Of a stretch of 54,571 nt of DNA, positions 1-54,571 are shown piece after piece. Under the pieces are notes generated by a model. It saw only the letters and a list, made by a program, of their open reading frames with translations. It had not been told where the DNA came from and made no database searches. Position 1 is the stretch's first letter, and each line of letters begins with the position of its first letter. The position numbers and the translations under genes are program-made. The stretch comes from a virus, in IMG/VR virus record IMGVR_UViG_3300031586_000003, positions 1 through 54,571 of that record. One strand, written 5' to 3'.

Positions 1-127
1 TATCTATAGTAGATGCAACCCCAGTTCCTCCTCCGTTGCAGTAAATAAACGATGTGGCAGTTCCAAGACTTGCACCAGTAGCCGCAGACAATTCCAGTTC
101 TAATGGTGCATAGTTTCCTTGAGTAGT
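1..127. repeat. Left copy of 127-bp exact terminal repeat
   Basis: These 127 bases are identical to the last 127 of the window (54445-54571). The gene at the edges reads in frame through the join, so this is the overlap of a circular assembly, not a biological repeat inside the genome. The real unit is 54,444 bp. An overlap of exactly 127 is what a k=127 de Bruijn assembly leaves on a circular or circularly permuted molecule. Confidence 0.95.
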
Positions 128-12307: not shown

Positions 12308-13469
12308 CCCGCACCACCTATAATACTATTCTATAGCGTCTTTCAGAAGACGCTTTGACCATTTTTCTTTTTTAATTATGAATCCTCAAGAATCGATTAT
12401 TCAACTCTCTAATATCAAAAAAGCGGTTTCTGGCTGTCTGAGCAAATATTCCTACTGTAATCGTTACCTCACAGGAAAATCCCAATTTAATCCCTTCTGT
12501 AATACTGCCCTATAGCCAATTACAGAGGACAACTTCACATTTTGTTTTTCTCTGCACGCATCGTCAAAAATCTCACTTTTGGAGCTAAAATGCCAATATC
12601 TCAAAAATGACGATATTCTTAGAAAACTGGTATATTCACTCAAAAAACGGACGCCCTCTTGAAAACTACGATTTGCCGCCCTCCATAACCCCGATAAACA
12701 CTGCATCGCAGAGAGCACCTTTACGTCAAACGAACTTCTGCACGTTTAGGAAAAAATCGTCACGCTTCAAGTAAAATTACCTGTCTGATTTTTTCCTTCT
12801 GAAAAGCTAATTTTTTTTCAGCCTCTTAAAAAAATTCATCAATTTTTAGGAAAATTAGAAAAAGCTCCAAAATAGAAAAATCTGCATATTTCGGAAAAAA
12901 TTGAATGCCCCTATCTCCTCCGTCAGAAAATCGGTTTTTGCTCTCTGAGGTAAATATTCCGATAATAATCGTTCGTCTGAAATAAAATGTTGTTTTTACC
13001 CTTCCTGTAATGCTATTCTATGCTGTGTTTCAGGGAACACTTTCATCGTTTTGTTTTCTTCCGCACGGAAGCAGTCAAAATGCAATTCTTGCGTAAAAAT
13101 CGCAATATCGGGAATCCTAGCGATGTTTTTAAAAAACCGCATATTTTTCACAAAATCGAACGGTCTAATCACTTTTGCCCATTTTACCCTTTCTATGTTA
13201 CCGATGAATACTACATTACAGAAGATAGTTTTGGTTTTTATAAAAAGGTATTGTAAACTTGAAAAAACGCTACGTATTTTTAGAATTATATTTCTCCTTT
13301 TTTCGCTTTCCGATTCACAGTTTTTTTCAGAGCCTCTAAAATAAATTGCCTCTGTTTTTCCCTATTTTCCATAATTTATGTCCTCTGTATGCCTATCTAG
13401 GACTACATCATAAAAAGAGCCTTTTGAGTATCTTCCCCCTGCCTATATCAACCGTCTTTATCTCCATCC
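12308..13469. repeat. Gene-free array of degenerate repeats, unit roughly 180 bp
   Basis: About 1.1 kb without a convincing gene. A module recognisable as aataCTATTcTATAg...ttTCAGaggAcactTT...ATTTT recurs near 12321, 12500, 12686, 13008 and, weakly, 13206. A longer stretch near 12420-12840 aligns collinearly with 12930-13390, sharing for example CGGTTT, GCAAATATTCC/GTAAATATTCC, and TTTTTTTCAG followed by CCTCT. Minus-strand reading aligns the modules without indels (RAVLQKG, RIALQEG and RIVL before stops), so the array may be decayed protein repeats or an RNA/DNA element. A near-identical 20-bp direct repeat flanks it. Confidence 0.6.
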
Positions 13470-14561: not shown

Positions 14562-14588
14562 TTGACTTTTTCCAAAAATGACTATAAT
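14562..14588 (+). promoter_or_regulatory. Plus-strand sigma-70-like promoter
   Basis: TTGACT at 14562 and TATAAT at 14583 with a 15-bp spacer, shorter than ideal. The predicted start falls at about 14595, exactly the first base of the stem-closed RNA that follows. It is the only plus-strand promoter candidate I noticed in this otherwise leftward genome. Confidence 0.45.
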
Positions 14589-14594
14589 AAAAAC

Positions 14595-14660
14595 GGGAGT
14601 GCCAGGGAGAACATCCCATAAAACAAGACTGCTTGGCCGCGGACTTGTGGGCGCTCCCAT
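14595..14660. ncRNA. Compact multi-stem RNA candidate
   Basis: Outer stem GGGAGTGCC (14595-14603) with GGCGCTCCC (14650-14658), one G-U. Inside are GGGA/TCCC and ACAAG/CTTGT hairpins, giving a three-way junction. Plus-strand reading has a promoter ending at its first base. Minus-strand reading ends the outer stem with GTTTTTATT, so it would also work as an intrinsic terminator for the leftward RNA island. Direction unresolved. Confidence 0.5.
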
Positions 14661-14713: not shown

Positions 14714-14770
14714 AGGCAGAAAGCAAGACGAACATAGAACAAAGTCATTGTTGTTATAGCATTTCTGCCT
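14714..14770. ncRNA. GCA/TAGC stem-closed RNA, copy 1
   Basis: Closing stem AGGCAGAAA (14714-14722) with TTTCTGCCT (14762-14770), perfect over 9 bp. GCA follows the 5' strand and TAGC plus one base precede the 3' strand, with 31 bases between. The same arrangement recurs at 14897, 26729, 26801 and 26875. Its inner GACGAACATA can also pair with TATGTTCGTC at 14853-14862. Confidence 0.6.
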
Positions 14771-14777
14771 ATATTTA

Positions 14778-14827
14778 ATAAAAAACGAACAGAAAAAAAT
14801 CTCCTTTTAAGATTTTCCGCTGTTCGT
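14778..14827 (-). terminator. Rho-independent terminator
   Basis: On the minus strand ACGAACAG (14820-14827) pairs with CTGTTCGT (14785-14792), with a further AAAATC/GATTTT inner helix, followed by TTTTTTATT. It would end a short RNA of about 85 nt starting at the promoter 14869-14896. Confidence 0.75.
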
Positions 14828-14868
14828 GTTAGTCTTTTTGTTAGTCGATGTTTATGTTCGTCAATTAC

Positions 14869-14896
14869 AGTATATACTAAAAATTTAAAGTGTCAA
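14869..14896 (-). promoter_or_regulatory. Leftward sigma-70 promoter of the RNA island
   Basis: TTGACA (complement of 14891-14896), 16-bp spacer, TATACT (complement of 14869-14874). The spacer ends TTTTTAGTA, close to the promoters at 27142 and 28147. Predicted start about 14862. There is no protein gene before the terminator 35 bases further on, so this promoter seems to serve a small RNA. Confidence 0.75.
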
Positions 14897-14948
14897 GGGG
14901 AAGAGCAAGTGGCTCTTAGATATACATTGACATTTTAGCGTCTTCCCC
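14897..14948. ncRNA. GCA/TAGC stem-closed RNA, copy 2
   Basis: Closing stem GGGGAAGA (14897-14904) with TCTTCCCC (14941-14948). GCA at 14905-14907; TAGC at 14936-14939 plus G; 28 bases between. Inner hairpin AGAGC/GCTCT is an alternative fold. It directly follows the next element on the minus strand and abuts the -35 box of the promoter at 14891. Confidence 0.6.
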
Positions 14949-14951
14949 TAA

Positions 14952-15084
14952 AGTGGCTCTGGCAGGATACCCCTCCCTGCGTCCCTATCATAGCTTTTCC
15001 AATCCGCTCAAGAAAAGTTTCTAGGTTCATCAAGATTCTGGATTGGTTTCTTTCCCAAGCATCCTAGAATGCCACAGAGCCACT
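14952..15084 (-). ncRNA. GGCAGGAT-type structured RNA with its own promoter
   Basis: Outer stem AGTGGCTCT/AGAGCCACT (14952-14960, 15076-15084), continued by TGGCA/TGCCA around a 2-base bulge. A GCAGG...CCTGC hairpin (AT at the loop start) abuts it. Inside, CCAATCC/GGATTGG, CTTTTC/GAAAAG and TTCTAGG/CCTAGAA can form, partly exclusive of each other. The leftward promoter at 15088-15115 places the start at 15081-15083, the first base of the outer stem. No open frame. Matches the element at 33903-34021 at both ends. Confidence 0.6.
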
Positions 15085-15087
15085 ATA

Positions 15088-17282: not shown

Positions 17283-18594
17283 TTGCCCCTCCTTCCTTTT
17301 TCTCCTCCACCTCGAAAAACCTCAGTCTTTTTAAGTCAAAATGCAGGTCAACCTTGCCTGTCATCCCATCCCGGTTCTTGGCTATGTAAAGTTTCGTATC
17401 TTCAGGGTTGTTTTTAAAGTTCTCCACACCGGGCCGATATAGGAGTAGCACCTGATCCGAGTTATCCTCTATCCCCCCGGACTCCCGGAGGTCTCCCAAA
17501 ACTGGCCGCCTCCCCTCCGCCTTCCGGCTCAACTGTGAAATAGCCAATATAGGGATATTCCTTTTCTTCGCCAGTCTTTTCAAAGAGTAAGTCAGCCTCC
17601 CTAACTCCAAAGCCCTGGTCTCCTCTTCTCTGGCCGCCACTAGCTGGATATAATCTACAACTATCAGATCGCAGGGGATCTGTCCTGACAGAGCCTCGAT
17701 CTGCGCTATGTCCTCCAGATTGTCCAGGATAGTCAGCTTCCACTTCGCGATTTCCCTTGAGGCTTCGTTGACTTTTTCCAGATTATCCAAGCTCAAATTC
17801 TTTATCGCAAATCTTGAGAGATCTACTCCGGTCTCCATAGTCAAAAGCCTTCTAATCAGCTCAGATGCCCCCATTTCCAGGGAAACATAGATAATCTCTT
17901 TTCCTCTTTCTTTCAGCCCATACCGGCAAACAGTCAGGGCAAAACTGGTCTTTCCCATAGAGGTTCTTGCCCCCACGGTGATCAGCTTAGGGGCGCATAA
18001 TCCACCGATCCTCTCATCCAGGTTCGAAAGGCCGGTAGGAAATTCCAGCTCTTTGCCGATCCTATTCTCTATATCATCGTAAGTCTTTTTTATATTCTCA
18101 GGAAAATCAGTCTGCCTTTCCCTTGCCAATGTCCCCAAAGCCTCCCCTATCGTCCCCTCGATGATCTCCCGGCCTTCCGATAGAACCTCCACCAGCGGTT
18201 TTTCTTCAAAAACAGCCTCCCCTGCCTGGTAGTAGGCTCTCATCAACTGCCTGAGGTAATGCTTTTCCCTCACGATCCTGGCGTAGTCCTCGGCTACCAG
18301 CGGGGTCGGCACCAGCTCAATTAGCGTAGCTAAATAGGCTTTGCCCCCGCACTTTTCCTTATCTAGCCTGCTGTCTAGCAATACTTCATTTATAGTCAAT
18401 TGCTCATCGGCCATCTTCAGCATTACGTTATAGATGTGCCGGTGGGCTTCGGAATAGAACATTAACGGGTCAGGCAGGATCGCCCTCACCCGATCGATCG
18501 TATTGTTAAGTAGAATACATCCCAGCACGGCCTGCTCGGCGCTCAAATCGTGGGGTGGCACTCTCTCAACGCTATCTGTGTCAATTTGTCTCAT
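17272..18594 (-). CDS. dnaB: Replicative DNA helicase DnaB
   Basis: 440 aa starting MRQIDTDSVERVPPHDLSAEQ. N-terminal domain AVLGCILLNN; RecA-like core with Walker A ITVGARTSMGKTSFAL, H1a/H2 LIVVDYIQLV, and LAISQLSRKAEGRRP, DLRESGGIEDNSDQVLLLYRP. Start chosen at the ATG after AAGGAGCAAAA, overlapping the stop of the radical SAM gene. It is the fork helicase, presumably loaded by the initiator gene upstream. Confidence 0.95.
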   Translation of the reverse strand: MRQIDTDSVERVPPHDLSAEQAVLGCILLNNTIDRVRAILPDPLMFYSEAHRHIYNVMLKMADEQLTINEVLLDSRLDKEKCGGKAYLATLIELVPTPLVAEDYARIVREKHYLRQLMRAYYQAGEAVFEEKPLVEVLSEGREIIEGTIGEALGTLARERQTDFPENIKKTYDDIENRIGKELEFPTGLSNLDERIGGLCAPKLITVGARTSMGKTSFALTVCRYGLKERGKEIIYVSLEMGASELIRRLLTMETGVDLSRFAIKNLSLDNLEKVNEASREIAKWKLTILDNLEDIAQIEALSGQIPCDLIVVDYIQLVAAREEETRALELGRLTYSLKRLAKKRNIPILAISQLSRKAEGRRPVLGDLRESGGIEDNSDQVLLLYRPGVENFKNNPEDTKLYIAKNRDGMTGKVDLHFDLKRLRFFEVEEKKEGGANEA

Positions 18595-19412
18595 TTTTGC
18601 TCCTTCATCATACTTTTTATAATCGCTGGTCTTGACCATCTTCTCACAAATAAATTATTTTTTCTCCCAACTACTCTCTTTTGCTTATTTGGTGGTTGAT
18701 AAAGTTGAACGAAAGGCAATGCCCCGCACTCATAGGCAAATCGCAACCTGTCCTCGCTTTCTTGAATGGGCTCACTAAAACCCGCTAAAACATAGCATCT
18801 TATTTTATTTCGACTGAAACCTGCCATCCTTAATTTTTCAGCCACTTTGGCAAATTGCTTTTGACTATCCCAGTTATCCAAAGCTAGCCACAATTCTTTT
18901 ATTCGTAGTCCTCTCAATTCTTCAATGTGCCAATCCTTAAACAATCTAACATCTAATCCTCCTAAAAATTGTATTGCTCGCTGAGTTTTTAGCATTGAAA
19001 AGACTTTCATTAAGTGATCTCTATTGCTTAAAAGAATATTATTATCCTGGATAATGTTGCCAGCCGCAATTTGATTCAATGTTCTAAATCTGCCTTCGAT
19101 TTCGGACACTAAGCACCAAGGGCAGGTAAAGTCGCAACCCCTCGATGTAAACACAACTCCTTTTTTGATGTACCTACCAGGCACAAACTCATCTCTATTG
19201 AGTCTATAAGCTGGGCCTCCGATCTTCACAACTGGATAATATTCAGACCATTCATTTTTTATCTCCTCACAGAAGTCTCTATCCCAGGTGAATAGACAAG
19301 AGATATGCACCTCGTCTACCTCGGGCCTCCATAACTCTGGAGAACCGATAATAACCAAGTTATCCTTGGGAGTGAAGTTTGTCCTCCTAGGGAACACTCT
19401 AAGGATTTTCAT
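18591..19412 (-). CDS. Radical SAM protein
   Basis: 273 aa. The iron-sulfur motif CDFTCPWC (C-x3-C-x2-C) lies at about residues 92-99 after VVFTSRG. Then come IQFLGGLDVR, ELWLALDN and RCYVLAGFSEPIQE, the usual strands of a partial TIM barrel. The N-terminal 80 residues (LVIIGSPELWRPEVDEVHI) look like a B12-binding-like or Rossmann part. Substrate unknown. It sits between the initiator and dnaB, and a remnant of a dnaB start lies just upstream, so it seems to have been inserted there. Confidence 0.85.
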   Translation of the reverse strand: MKILRVFPRRTNFTPKDNLVIIGSPELWRPEVDEVHISCLFTWDRDFCEEIKNEWSEYYPVVKIGGPAYRLNRDEFVPGRYIKKGVVFTSRGCDFTCPWCLVSEIEGRFRTLNQIAAGNIIQDNNILLSNRDHLMKVFSMLKTQRAIQFLGGLDVRLFKDWHIEELRGLRIKELWLALDNWDSQKQFAKVAEKLRMAGFSRNKIRCYVLAGFSEPIQESEDRLRFAYECGALPFVQLYQPPNKQKRVVGRKNNLFVRRWSRPAIIKSMMKEQK

Positions 19413-22826: not shown

Positions 22827-22979
22827 TTACCTCCTCTCAGTTTGTTTTCTCCATTCAGCTAAACATTCTTTTTCAAACAAATTCCAAATCTCATTTAGGA
22901 GTTTGTTTTCCTTGTCTTTCCACTTGTGCCGATTCCACTCACAAAGAAGCCTAGTTAATTTCTCTATTCTTTCTTTCAT
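22827..22979 (-). CDS. Tiny helical protein, 50 aa
   Basis: MKERIEKLTRLLCEWNRHKWKDKENKLLNEIWNLFEKECLAEWRKQTERR, printed here in two parts: MKERIEKLTRLLCEWNRH then KWKDKENKLLNEIW. All helix, Trp-rich. ATGA overlap with the ssDNA-binding gene upstream, suggesting coupling and a possible replication partner. Confidence 0.5.
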   Translation of the reverse strand: MKERIEKLTRLLCEWNRHKWKDKENKLLNEIWNLFEKECLAEWRKQTERR

Positions 22980-23899
22980 TTTTTGCCCCCCAGCTCCTTT
23001 TGCAGCTCCTCAAACATATCGTCAAACACAGAGTCTATCTCCACCAGGTAGTCGTTTGAGAGGCCCAGAAATGATTTGACTTGATAGTTCTTAGTCAGCC
23101 ACTCTTCCAACCCCAGCCCCTTCGTCTTGCCGCTCACAAACAGCTCTGCGAACCGCTTGCCCAGCCGCTTTATCAGCTTGTCGCGGTCGAAGTCCTTATC
23201 GACTACTTTGTCTAAGGATGTTCCCGGCACGGTTTCTATCTTTTCTATGGTATTTTCTTCTAGCTTCTTTCCCTCTTTGGGTTTTCCGATTGCAGCGCCT
23301 TTTTCTAAATGATCCATTCTTTCAGGTTTAACGCGCTCTTGCTCTTCTCCTTTTTTGGGTTCATTGTTGTATATCCACCCCAGCCAGCCATCAGCTTCCT
23401 TCTCCACTGCCTTGCTCCATTTCAGGCCCGCCTCGATGAGGGATTTAGCAACGGCGCTTTTGGTGATAATTCTCTGCTCTTTATCCTTTCGGTGATCCCA
23501 ATATTCTCGTTCATCCTCTTTAGAATCAAGCACACCCGACCCACCCTGGGGTGGTTTTTCACTATTCAAGAGCTTTACTTTCCCCCTCGCCAGCCTGCGC
23601 TCGTCCTTATAGATGTCGGTCTTGGCATCCTCAACCCTAATCCTTTTACCTATCGCTGTTCCAGGGATGGCCTCCTCGGCCTTATTGGCTATGAAATCAA
23701 CGACAATCGCTCCCGTGCCGTCATTTATAACCAGTTTCTGACTCCAGAACGCCTGGCCTTCCCTCTTCCCACTCTTTACTTTGCGCTCATATGCCTGTCT
23801 AGCTTCCTTGACGGTGGCCTCCAGGGTGATGTCGGACATCTTGGTGAAGATGGTCTCATCTAGGTCTAACAGCTTTTTGATGGTTATATTGTCGCTCAT
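22976..23899 (-). CDS. OB-fold protein, putative single-stranded DNA-binding protein
   Basis: 307 aa. Residues about 15-115 look like an OB fold: ITLEATVKEARQAYE, FWSQKLVINDGTGAIVVDFI, GTAIGKRIRVEDAKTDIY, ARGKVKLL. A charged linker with KPPQGGSG follows, then a helical C-terminal domain (RDKLIKRLGKRFAELF, WLTKNYQVKSFLGLS). Next to the exonuclease and initiator genes, so ssDNA binding in replication or recombination is a good guess. It is not a close SSB relative. Confidence 0.6.
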   Translation of the reverse strand: MSDNITIKKLLDLDETIFTKMSDITLEATVKEARQAYERKVKSGKREGQAFWSQKLVINDGTGAIVVDFIANKAEEAIPGTAIGKRIRVEDAKTDIYKDERRLARGKVKLLNSEKPPQGGSGVLDSKEDEREYWDHRKDKEQRIITKSAVAKSLIEAGLKWSKAVEKEADGWLGWIYNNEPKKGEEQERVKPERMDHLEKGAAIGKPKEGKKLEENTIEKIETVPGTSLDKVVDKDFDRDKLIKRLGKRFAELFVSGKTKGLGLEEWLTKNYQVKSFLGLSNDYLVEIDSVFDDMFEELQKELGGKK

Positions 23900-26529: not shown

Positions 26530-26708
26530 ACCTCCACCCTCCTTTTTACCCCCCCCGTCCTGCTATTAGGCGGGGTGATTTTCCATCTTTCTTCTAGCAG
26601 TCTCATCTTAGATAATAAAGTTTGACGAATCACTCCTTGCCCTGCTAATAACGGTAGCCTATTTTTTATGTAATCCTTCAATTCTTTCCAGGCATTTTTG
26701 TAAAGCAT
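26526..26708 (-). CDS. Hypothetical protein, 60 aa
   Basis: MLYKNAWKELKDYIKNRLPLLAGQGVIRQTLLSKMRLLEERW..., a helical phage protein type often seen next to YopX. Preceded by a triple RNA array in its leader. ATGA overlap with YopX. Confidence 0.55.
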   Translation of the reverse strand: MLYKNAWKELKDYIKNRLPLLAGQGVIRQTLLSKMRLLEERWKITPPNSRTGGVKRRVEV

Positions 26709-26727: not shown

Positions 26728-26922
26728 GGGGGAAGAGCAAACAAGCCTTAGCTGTTGCATTATATAACTAGCATCTTCCCCTGTCCGAATATTGTTTGCA
26801 GCGGGGGAGGAGCAGGAGCTTACTAGCTTTCGCACTGCCTTCTTAGCTTCCTCCCCGCAATTTTTTCGTAGAGATGGGAGCAGTGAGGATCTAGAATTTC
26901 TCACGAAGATGATAGCATCCCA
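26728..26922. ncRNA. Tandem array of three GCA/TAGC stem-closed RNAs (copies 3-5)
   Basis: Copy 3: GGGGAAGA (26729) with TCTTCCCC (26774-26781). Copy 4: GCGGGG(G)AGGA (26801) with TCCTCCCCGC (26849-26858). Copy 5: TGGGA (26875) with TCCCA (26918-26922). In each, GCA follows the 5' strand and TAGC plus one base precede the 3' strand; the gaps are 29, 29 and 30 bases. Closing stems differ in sequence yet keep pairing, good evidence for an RNA. The array lies between a small HTH gene and the 60-aa gene; an open frame through it follows the hairpins and is not convincing. Confidence 0.6.
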
Positions 26923-27141: not shown

Positions 27142-27169
27142 ATTATATACTAATTATTTAAATCGTCAA
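27142..27169 (-). promoter_or_regulatory. Leftward sigma-70 promoter for the HTH gene and RNA array
   Basis: TTGACG (complement of 27164-27169), 16-bp spacer ending TTAGTA, TATAAT (complement of 27142-27147). Nearly the same as the promoters at 28147, 28495 and 14869. It would drive the HTH gene and the array at 26728-26922. Confidence 0.8.
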
Positions 27170-34030: not shown

Positions 34031-34765
34031 TTATAAATCGTAGGCAGCCCAAGCAGAATGGAAAATGAACATGGCAAACTCCCATTCCAAATACCCATAA
34101 CCCTGAGCGCCCCAGCCAGTTCCCCAGCTATTCTTAAACTTCAGGAACTTCTCGTCATAGGCTACAGCCAATATAGCGTGATAGCCTAGAATATCCTGAG
34201 AGCTTGAAGGTTTGATAATTCCATTTTTGCCAACATCAAACCAAGTTGGATGGACAGCCACCCCTGCCACGACGGGGCCCGTCTCATGCAAACCCCTTTT
34301 GATCAACTTAATGTTTTTCTCGGGAGTAATCAGGCTGCGGTATTTCTTGATCTTGAATATGAATGCCCTGGAGGCAGCCTGCTCATCGGGCTGACCCTTC
34401 TCTCCTGGCACGTATGGCCAGAGTTCCTCTGGGCAAATCCCGTGCTTTTGCAGGGCCTTCATAGCCCCTCGTATTGTAGTGCCCTCATAGTCTACTCCAG
34501 GGAATTCATCCTCTACTTTAGCAAACTCATAAATCCAGCGCTCAGAAAAGTCGTATTTCTTGCCGTATTCACGCCACTCCTGAAACTCTTTTAATCCCGT
34601 AGTAGCAAAACCAACGCAAGCACCTTCACTCCCCTGGTTTCTTACTTCAGTAACCTGCTCTGTCCAGTCAATCTCTTTTGGCAAATCGTATTCTGGAATT
34701 GGTGCAATCATTGCCAAATCTCTATAATCCGGCGGTTCTGGCCGATAACCTAAATTAAACTTCAT
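34031..34765 (-). CDS. Papain-like cysteine protease (C1A)
   Basis: 244 aa with all catalytic parts: VRNQGSEGACVGFATTG (Q and Cys), GYHAILAVAYD (His) and KFKNSWGTGWGAQGYGYL (Asn, then W-G). No signal peptide. It follows a tail glycosidase-like gene and precedes the lysis set, so may act on host cell-surface proteins or peptidoglycan crosslinks. Papain-type proteases are rare in phages. Confidence 0.88.
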   Translation of the reverse strand: MKFNLGYRPEPPDYRDLAMIAPIPEYDLPKEIDWTEQVTEVRNQGSEGACVGFATTGLKEFQEWREYGKKYDFSERWIYEFAKVEDEFPGVDYEGTTIRGAMKALQKHGICPEELWPYVPGEKGQPDEQAASRAFIFKIKKYRSLITPEKNIKLIKRGLHETGPVVAGVAVHPTWFDVGKNGIIKPSSSQDILGYHAILAVAYDEKFLKFKNSWGTGWGAQGYGYLEWEFAMFIFHSAWAAYDL

Positions 34766-35781
34766 CTTATCTCCTTATTTAATTTTTTAACTTGCTCTTT
34801 CATATCATCCCTCTCGGCAAATCCTGTAGCTTCATTACCCGCACCGTGCAGATAAATCGCATAGCTATTCATACCTCCAGGAATGTTGTTATTCCACCAA
34901 CGATATTGCTCAATTATGTTAGGCACACCTTCAGACTTCTCTTCATAGCCCCTCAGAATTACCATAAAAGGTTTATTTTGAGGCAGAATAGTTTTAATCT
35001 TCCCAAGATGTGCATTCATCGCCGCTTGATTTTGCCATTCCTCTAGATTAGGATAACAACTTGCCATAATAATATCCCAGCTATCGAAATCCACCCATTT
35101 ATTCCAGTCGCCCTGATCGATAGAGGCAAATCGGAGGACATTAGGGGCTTCTTTCTCACATATCTTGGCAAATAACTGTTGGTCATCTTTAGAGATATGC
35201 TCGCAGTCCAGTTCATCCCAACAGGTAACTCCAGCCAAATTTGGGTCATCCTTGATGTGAGGAAGAATTGACTCGGCTTGCCCAGTCGTGATGCGAGGCA
35301 GAAAATACATATTCTTTTCATTGCACTTATCTAGCCACAGCCGAAAGTCAGCTATAGAGAATTTCCTGCTATCGTTGGTATGTATTACATTGAACCCAAG
35401 CTCCCAGAGATCGTGGAGGCAGCGTGATATAGCAGAAGTAGTATGACCAATACGATATACTTTATCGGTATGATGGTTCTCAAACTCTCCCTCTGGCCAA
35501 TCCTCTATGGCTTTTCCTTCCTCGATGGCACTCAAAAACTCCTCCCATTCTGGGACAGAGAGAATCTCTATATCTTCCCAGGCTATTCCTAAGTCAGCCG
35601 ACATCTTATTCCAAACTTCGAGAGTCTTCACCCAGCGCCTTTTACCGTTTTGCATATAGTAAACTTCTGGATGGATCGGACACCTGTAGAAATTGCCATC
35701 TGGATAGCTCAGCTTTATCTCCTCTACGCTCTCCGCTTCAATAACAATGTTGTCACCCTTTACGTTGAATCTTTTCATCAT
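34762..35781 (-). CDS. TIM-barrel-like protein, possible tail glycosidase
   Basis: 339 aa. N-terminal beta domain with YRCPIHPEVYYMQNGKRRWVK, then GFNVIHTNDSRKFSIADFRLWL, CYFLPRITTGQAESIL, VTCWDELDCEHI, LRFASIDQGDWNKW, IIMASCYPNLEEW and PFMVILRGYEEKSEG. Repeated strand-helix units ending in Asp/Glu resemble glycosidase barrels. No catalytic pair can be fixed. ATGA overlap with the protease. Confidence 0.6.
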   Translation of the reverse strand: MMKRFNVKGDNIVIEAESVEEIKLSYPDGNFYRCPIHPEVYYMQNGKRRWVKTLEVWNKMSADLGIAWEDIEILSVPEWEEFLSAIEEGKAIEDWPEGEFENHHTDKVYRIGHTTSAISRCLHDLWELGFNVIHTNDSRKFSIADFRLWLDKCNEKNMYFLPRITTGQAESILPHIKDDPNLAGVTCWDELDCEHISKDDQQLFAKICEKEAPNVLRFASIDQGDWNKWVDFDSWDIIMASCYPNLEEWQNQAAMNAHLGKIKTILPQNKPFMVILRGYEEKSEGVPNIIEQYRWWNNNIPGGMNSYAIYLHGAGNEATGFAERDDMKEQVKKLNKEIR

Positions 35782-54292: not shown

Positions 54293-54571
54293 TTAGGCAC
54301 TAATCAAAGCCAAATATCTGATTCCAACTGTGGGAATGTAAACCCTTAAACCAGCATAACCAGTTACCGAACTTATATCAGTGTCAATGAATTTCCCACT
54401 ACCAACGGTTAGATTAGTTCCAAGCGTAAGGAAATTTCCAGTAGTATCTATAGTAGATGCAACCCCAGTTCCTCCTCCGTTGCAGTAAATAAACGATGTG
54501 GCAGTTCCAAGACTTGCACCAGTAGCCGCAGACAATTCCAGTTCTAATGGTGCATAGTTTCCTTGAGTAGT
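54293..54571 (-). CDS. Virion structural protein, C-terminal part (continues at 1-571)
   Basis: The C-terminal half of the 240-aa protein whose start is at 571 on the other edge. It reads ...TIDTTGNFLTLGTNLTVGSGKF and ends RYLALISA. Reading in frame across the 127-base overlap supports the circular genome. It is not a complete gene within the window alone. Confidence 0.75.
   Translation of the reverse strand, partial: TTQGNYAPLELELSAATGASLGTATSFIYCNGGGTGVASTIDTTGNFLTLGTNLTVGSGKFIDTDISSVTGYAGLRVYIPTVGIRYLALISA
54445..54571. repeat. Right copy of 127-bp exact terminal repeat
   Basis: Same 127 bases as 1-127. Remove one copy to close the circle. Confidence 0.95.

What the first reader, a model, noticed from the sequence alone, without database searches (positions are those of the whole stretch)
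14714..14948. Family of five small stem-closed RNAs: P1-GCA-N28-31-TAGC-N-P1'
Five elements share one layout: a perfect or near-perfect closing stem, GCA right after its 5' strand, TAGC plus one base right before its 3' strand, and 28-31 bases between. Copies are at 14714-14770, 14897-14948, 26729-26781, 26801-26858 and 26875-26922. Closing stems differ in sequence (AGGCAGAAA, GGGGAAGA, GCGGGG, TGGGA) but stay paired, so selection is on structure. An inner hairpin starting at the GCA is possible in each. I know of no class like this. Roles could be regulatory RNAs, decoys for a host nuclease or toxin, or processing sites. It is the best candidate here for an undescribed system.
Basis: seen in the sequence. 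Interest (0 to 1): 0.8.

Follow-up and report, generated by a model that had tools for sequence, protein, structure and literature searches.

The report
Orphan TIGR-type guide-RNA hairpins in phage
Five small hairpins in this complete phage genome have the layout of the guide RNAs of TIGR-Tas, a recently described RNA-guided DNA-targeting system, but the phage carries no recognisable copy of the protein that would use them.

Summary
The five elements are real, at the stated places, and far from chance. In all five, the loop reads GCA-N9-TAG-N5..8-CA-N9-TAGC: two variable segments of exactly 9 nt, each flanked by the same short boxes, closed by a variable but paired stem. This is the anatomy of TIGR stem-loop arrays (Faure et al. 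2025, PMC12045711).

A covariance model found such units in other phages. In three related contigs, about 12-13 units flank a TasR homologue (NCBIfam TIGR_Tas_endo E 9e-22; TasR structure 9MTY E 3e-13). Three of the six strongest promoters in the window sit just upstream of the two clusters.

The window has a 127-bp terminal repeat, so it is probably complete, yet no Tas or Nop protein was detected. A near relative keeps the flanks of cluster 1 but lacks its two units. Another relative has three units at the same place, also without Tas.

Best reading: orphan TIGR stem-loop guide RNAs, a new variant of a known kind. The effector and the targets remain unknown.

The parts
14714..14770 (-). Unit 1. 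RNA-sense layout 5'-P1(14770-14762)-N-GCUA(14760-14757, box C)-spacer A(14756-14748)-UG(box D)-linker(14745-14738)-CUA(box C')-spacer B(14734-14726)-UGC(14725-14723, box D')-P1'(14722-14714)
   Evidence: scan; model R1 54.2 bits, E 1.9e-10 (the model was built with this unit); 10 consecutive Watson-Crick pairs in the stem
14897..14948 (-). Unit 2. Spacers at 14935-14927 (A) and 14916-14908 (B); stem 8-9 bp
   Evidence: R1 49.9 bits, E 2e-9
26875..26922 (-). Unit 5, first of the second cluster in transcription order. Spacers 26912-26904 (A) and 26891-26883 (B); stem 5 bp
   Evidence: R1 44.3 bits
26804..26856 (-). Unit 4. Spacers 26843-26835 (A) and 26823-26815 (B); stem 8 bp
   Evidence: R1 52.2 bits
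26729..26781 (-). Unit 3. Spacers 26768-26760 (A) and 26748-26740 (B); stem 8-9 bp
   Evidence: R1 52.8 bits
15088..15115 (-). Sigma-70-like promoter TTGACA-16-TATCAT with TG before the -10, upstream of unit 2
   Evidence: one of only 6 sites with >=11/12 matches in the window
14869..14896 (-). Sigma-70-like promoter TTGACA-16-TATACT between unit 2 and unit 1
27142..27169 (-). Sigma-70-like promoter TTGACG-16-TATAAT upstream of units 5, 4 and 3
14585..14660 (-). Terminator-like closing structure (GGGAGCGCC...GGCACTCCCGTTTTT) downstream of unit 1
   Evidence: read from the sequence; not scored by the scanner on this strand; same position as an inverted repeat with T-run after the units of the relative L290

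Best explanation
The five elements are dual-spacer guide-RNA units of the TIGR stem-loop type, arranged in two small clusters (2 + 3 units). They are transcribed from the minus strand by phage promoters. Each transcript folds into hairpins in which a variable stem closes two 9-nt spacers, each framed by box C (GCUA) and box D (UG/UGC). By analogy with TasR, a Nop-domain dimer would hold the two box C/D pairs and present spacer A and spacer B to the two strands of one 18-bp DNA target. Shown here: anatomy, covariation, relatives, promoter sequences, and a TasR homologue beside homologous arrays. Inferred: expression, processing, protein binding and DNA targeting. This phage appears complete but encodes no recognisable Tas, so the units are orphans here. 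The effector is most likely supplied in trans (prophage, host or co-infecting phage), or is too divergent to detect.
For: Exact 9/9 spacing in all five units (0 in shuffles). Matching units with unrelated spacers and stems in other phages. Covariation in stem and box pairs, including a box pair changing G-C to A-U. In G010, G011 and G012, about 12-13 units lie beside a 310-aa protein matching NCBIfam TIGR_Tas_endo (9e-22; about 1e-23 in the six-frame search) and PDB 9MTY, the TasR RNP (3.3e-13). The published stem-loop TIGR description matches: two 8-12 nt spacers, box C/D, palindromic stem, variable linker. Strand: three strong promoters; A.C mismatches in the + reading, which are G.U on the - strand, outnumber G.U 20 to 7; tasR lies on the same strand as the RNA reading.
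Against: No Tas or Nop protein was found in the window. No convincing spacer target was found in 1.33 Mb of phage DNA. No transcript data exist. Clusters of 2-3 units are short. The tie to TasR runs through distant phages (G010-G012).
Confidence: 0.86

Rival explanations
1. The units are used by a divergent effector encoded in this phage that sequence profiles miss.
For: Three unit-bearing phages (window, G009, G031) lack a detectable Tas, yet the units keep their boxes. A radical-SAM protein (window 18591-19412) has homologues in all unit-bearing phages tested and is 180 bp from the units in G031.
Against: Proteins >=150 aa without clear assignment are few: 22976-23899 has a weak OB-fold signal, 34762-35781 lies among tail genes. 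The radical-SAM protein is only about 27% identical to those of G009, G010 and G012. Of 78 radical-SAM loci only L290 has units. The one structure prediction run, on 22976-23899, was of too low confidence to use.
Confidence: 0.25
2. The units are decaying remnants of a larger array whose tas gene was lost.
For: No tas gene; G001, 91% identical in terminase, lacks both units of cluster 1 while the flanks align at 85% and 77%, so the units come and go.
Against: All five window units have perfect boxes, 9/9 spacing and (but for unit 5) long perfect stems, and score higher with the model than most units of the Tas-bearing G010 array (the model was trained on them, so this is biased). Promoter sequences are intact.
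Confidence: 0.2
3. A structured RNA family unrelated to TIGR (regulatory RNA, decoy or processing site) that resembles it by convergence.
For: No Tas in this genome; Rfam has nothing at gathering score and only chance matches below it.
Against: Two spacers of exactly 9 nt, paired boxes and variable palindromic stems are a specific combination, and the same units flank a TasR homologue in G010-G012.
Confidence: 0.08

Closest known systems
TIGR stem-loop arrays of TIGR-Tas (Faure et al. 2025, PMC12045711, Fig. 7)
   Same: Two short variable spacers, each between box C and box D; variable palindromic stem instead of edge repeats; variable linker instead of loop repeat; TIGR systems are common in phages; units in separate subclusters.
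   Different: No Tas gene detected in this genome; only 2 + 3 units, about 12 kb apart; box C is GCUA rather than the CCA given for TasR dual-repeat arrays.
TIGR dual-repeat arrays (36-nt tigRNA)
   Same: 9-nt spacers; the box C/D core of the window units spans 35-38 nt; repeats begin with UG (box D).
   Different: No conserved edge or loop repeats; extended closing stems.
IS110 bridge RNA
   Same: Paired guide strands in an internal loop, bound by a Nop-like domain in the known system.
   Different: One 50-60 nt hairpin per unit instead of one RNA with two such loops; no transposase or element ends found here.
Archaeal/eukaryotic box C/D sRNA
   Same: Architecture stem - box C - guide - box D' - linker - box C' - guide - box D - stem.
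   Different: Different box sequences, 9-nt guides, no Nop5-like protein found in the window; fibrillarin was not searched for by itself.

Membership tests
TIGR stem-loop array (RNA part) | two variable spacers of 8-12 nt per unit | tested here: met
   exactly 9 + 9 nt in all five units (alignments A1 and A6)
[quoted passage not shown]
   GCUA/UGC boxes at both ends, pairs kept or changed on both sides
TIGR stem-loop array (RNA part) | variable but consistently palindromic stem around each unit | tested here: met
   5-10 bp stems with covariation
TIGR stem-loop array (RNA part) | tandem array of several units | tested here: inconclusive
   clusters of 2 and 3 in the window; about 12-13 in G010-G012
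TIGR-Tas system | Nop-domain Tas protein encoded with the array | tested here: not met
   window: none by Pfam Nop, Transposase_20, NF052498 or a TasR homologue; present next to the arrays of G010-G012
TIGR-Tas system | array expressed and processed, RNA bound by Tas | not testable with these tools
   no RNA or binding data; promoter-like sequences only
TIGR-Tas system | spacers A and B target the two strands of adjacent DNA | tested here: inconclusive
   no excess of targets over controls in 1.33 Mb
Any Rfam family | match at gathering score | tested here: not met
   none in the window; only chance matches at E up to 10 in the two unit regions

The most novel reading that the evidence does not exclude
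A complete phage lineage carries guide-RNA units alone and borrows the Tas effector of another genome in the same cell, or uses a new non-Nop effector. That would make these mobile orphan guides that redirect another element's RNA-guided machinery.
Probability: 0.4. Interest if true: 0.82.

Novelty: new variant of a known kind. Interest (0 to 1): 0.62.

Why it matters
TIGR-Tas was described in 2025, and its natural role, its targets and how units are gained are open questions (PMC12045711). A complete phage genome with well-formed units but no Tas, a near relative in which the two units of cluster 1 are absent, and distant relatives with units beside tasR give a comparative system for asking how units spread and which protein uses them. 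The refined box rule and covariance model also allow search for units away from tas genes, which protein-first mining would miss.

Tried and rejected
Exact-stem pattern in IMG/VR: nothing. Window region against INPHARED: no match. L133 array against INPHARED and PLSDB: no match. TasR homologue against INPHARED: no match. L171 pattern hits are a GC-rich tandem repeat overlapping a long open frame, L226 is a lone weak match; both set aside. Genome contigs pattern scan gave no convincing unit. A search of PMC text for the 'skipping-rope' motif, a remembered lead, gave nothing useful. H/ACA-like guide and CRISPR-mimic ideas were dropped once the TIGR match was found. Radical-SAM protein as effector: the link is weak, since only 1 of 78 radical-SAM loci has units. 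Structure prediction of 22976-23899 without an alignment was unusable (mean pLDDT 39). Spacer target search gave no excess; the best was one 1-mismatch site in G010's own genome (expected 0.25).

Full report
1. Observation. One search recovers exactly the five elements on + and none on -. Four have stems of at least 8 pairs against 0.07 expected, and five have the full internal box pattern against none in 100 shuffles. The loop is not featureless. Counting from GCA, TAG follows after exactly 9 bases in all five; counting back from TAGC, CA precedes by exactly 9 bases in all five. Only the linker between (5-8 nt) and the 9-nt segments vary.

2. Relatives. The pattern GAGCA-N9-TAG-N4..10-CA-N9-TAGC-N-TC in IMG/VR returned 61 stretches. 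Most lack a closing stem and are chance, but L090, L095 and L133 have long stems; L162 was added by a second pattern. A covariance model built from ten units (R1) scores the five window units at 44-54 bits (they are among its training set). It finds further units, not used for training, in a tandem array at L133 8000-8860 and its relatives, where a unit occurs about every 75 nt. Across 25 distinct units the pairs covary: 67 double-sided changes, 19 expected by shuffling; slid controls 4-13. That alignment was fitted to the model and leans towards it. The first MAFFT alignment, built from hand-picked units, gives the same picture.

3. Identity. Two variable 9-nt segments framed by short paired boxes inside a variable palindromic stem is the description of TIGR stem-loop arrays given by Faure et al. 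2025 (PMC12045711). Independent support: L133 7057-7989, between the array and two further units, encodes 310 aa matching NCBIfam TIGR_Tas_endo at 9e-22 (below its curated cut-off) and PDB 9MTY at 3.3e-13, which the paper states is its TasR RNP. An identical copy is in G010 and a 90% identical one in G012.

4. Strand. All main genes of the window are on -. On that strand the unit reads P1-N-GCUA-N9-UGC-linker-GCUA-N9-UGC-P1', with repeats beginning UG as in TasR arrays, where they end CCA. Mismatches that would be G.U on the - strand outnumber G.U on the + strand 20 to 7 (p 0.019 if independent, which they are not fully). Only six sites in the whole window reach 11/12 of the sigma-70 consensus; five are on -, and three of these lie immediately upstream of the units. 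In G010-G012 tasR is on the same strand as this reading, and in G009 the best-scoring unit is on the strand of the genes too (its weakest of three matches is on the other strand).

5. The effector. The window has an exact 127-bp direct terminal repeat, the usual sign of a complete circularly assembled genome. Nop (PF01798), Transposase_20, NF052498 and the TasR homologue give no match. So the RNA part of TIGR is present and the protein part was not detected. Under the rule that a tested, unmet feature blocks membership, this phage cannot be filed as a TIGR-Tas system; its RNAs can be filed as TIGR-type units.

6. Gain and loss. G001 (terminase 91% identical) keeps the flanks of cluster 1 but has neither unit there. 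G031 (capsid 77%, radical-SAM 69%, sigma-like 60%) has three tandem units between its radical-SAM gene and the sigma-like gene, followed by an inverted repeat and T-run; one scores well and two are weak. In the window the cluster also lies directly upstream of the sigma-like gene. G031 too has no NF052498 match, though its 35-kb contig may be partial. 80 terminase-relative loci gave no unit.

7. Mechanism. Inferred from TasR: a protein dimer binds the two box C/D pairs, and spacers A and B pair with opposite strands of an 18-bp site. Which protein does so here is unknown. My ranking: effector supplied in trans, divergent effector in this phage, decaying remnant. The target search found no excess.

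8. Verdict. Known kind, new variant: orphan TIGR stem-loop guide units in a probably complete phage genome.

Noticed in passing
window 14953-15085 (- strand): About 133-nt structure closed by AGTGGCTCTG...CAGAGCCACT, starting just downstream of the 15115-15088 promoter. In G001 the two arms are conserved but the interior differs. No Rfam match.
   Followed up: partly
window 18591-19412 (-): Radical-SAM protein with homologues in every unit-bearing phage checked (G009, G010, G012, G031) and in none of 24 other phage records checked, many of them partial.
   Followed up: partly
L133 9271-9999 (-); also G009, G010, G012: DUF5131 / radical SAM mobile pair protein A-like gene beside the unit array in G010-G012 and also present in G009; absent from the window.
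   Followed up: no
window 1-127 and 54445-54571: Exact 127-bp direct terminal repeat, suggesting a complete genome of 54,444 bp.
   Followed up: yes
window 26584-26611: Two abutting CA-N9-TAG motifs (CATCTTTCTTCTAG CAGTCTCATCTTAG) without a closing stem, near the second cluster; perhaps a decayed unit or chance.
   Followed up: no
window 14782-14830: Strong imperfect hairpin followed by T6 on the - strand between the 14896 promoter and unit 1; could be a terminator or attenuator.
   Followed up: no
window 12380-13300: Gene-poor stretch that looks like a diverged internal duplication of about 500 nt (judged by eye).
   Followed up: no
L133 7057-7989 (-): TasR homologue seems to lack the first catalytic Asp of the RuvC/DEDD fold (by eye against the IS110 motif), which would fit the inactive-RuvC, stem-array clade mentioned in PMC12045711.
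   Followed up: no
L245 12308 (G010): Spacer pair of one G010 array unit matches its own genome with one mismatch in the predicted target geometry; 0.25 such hits expected by chance.
   Followed up: no
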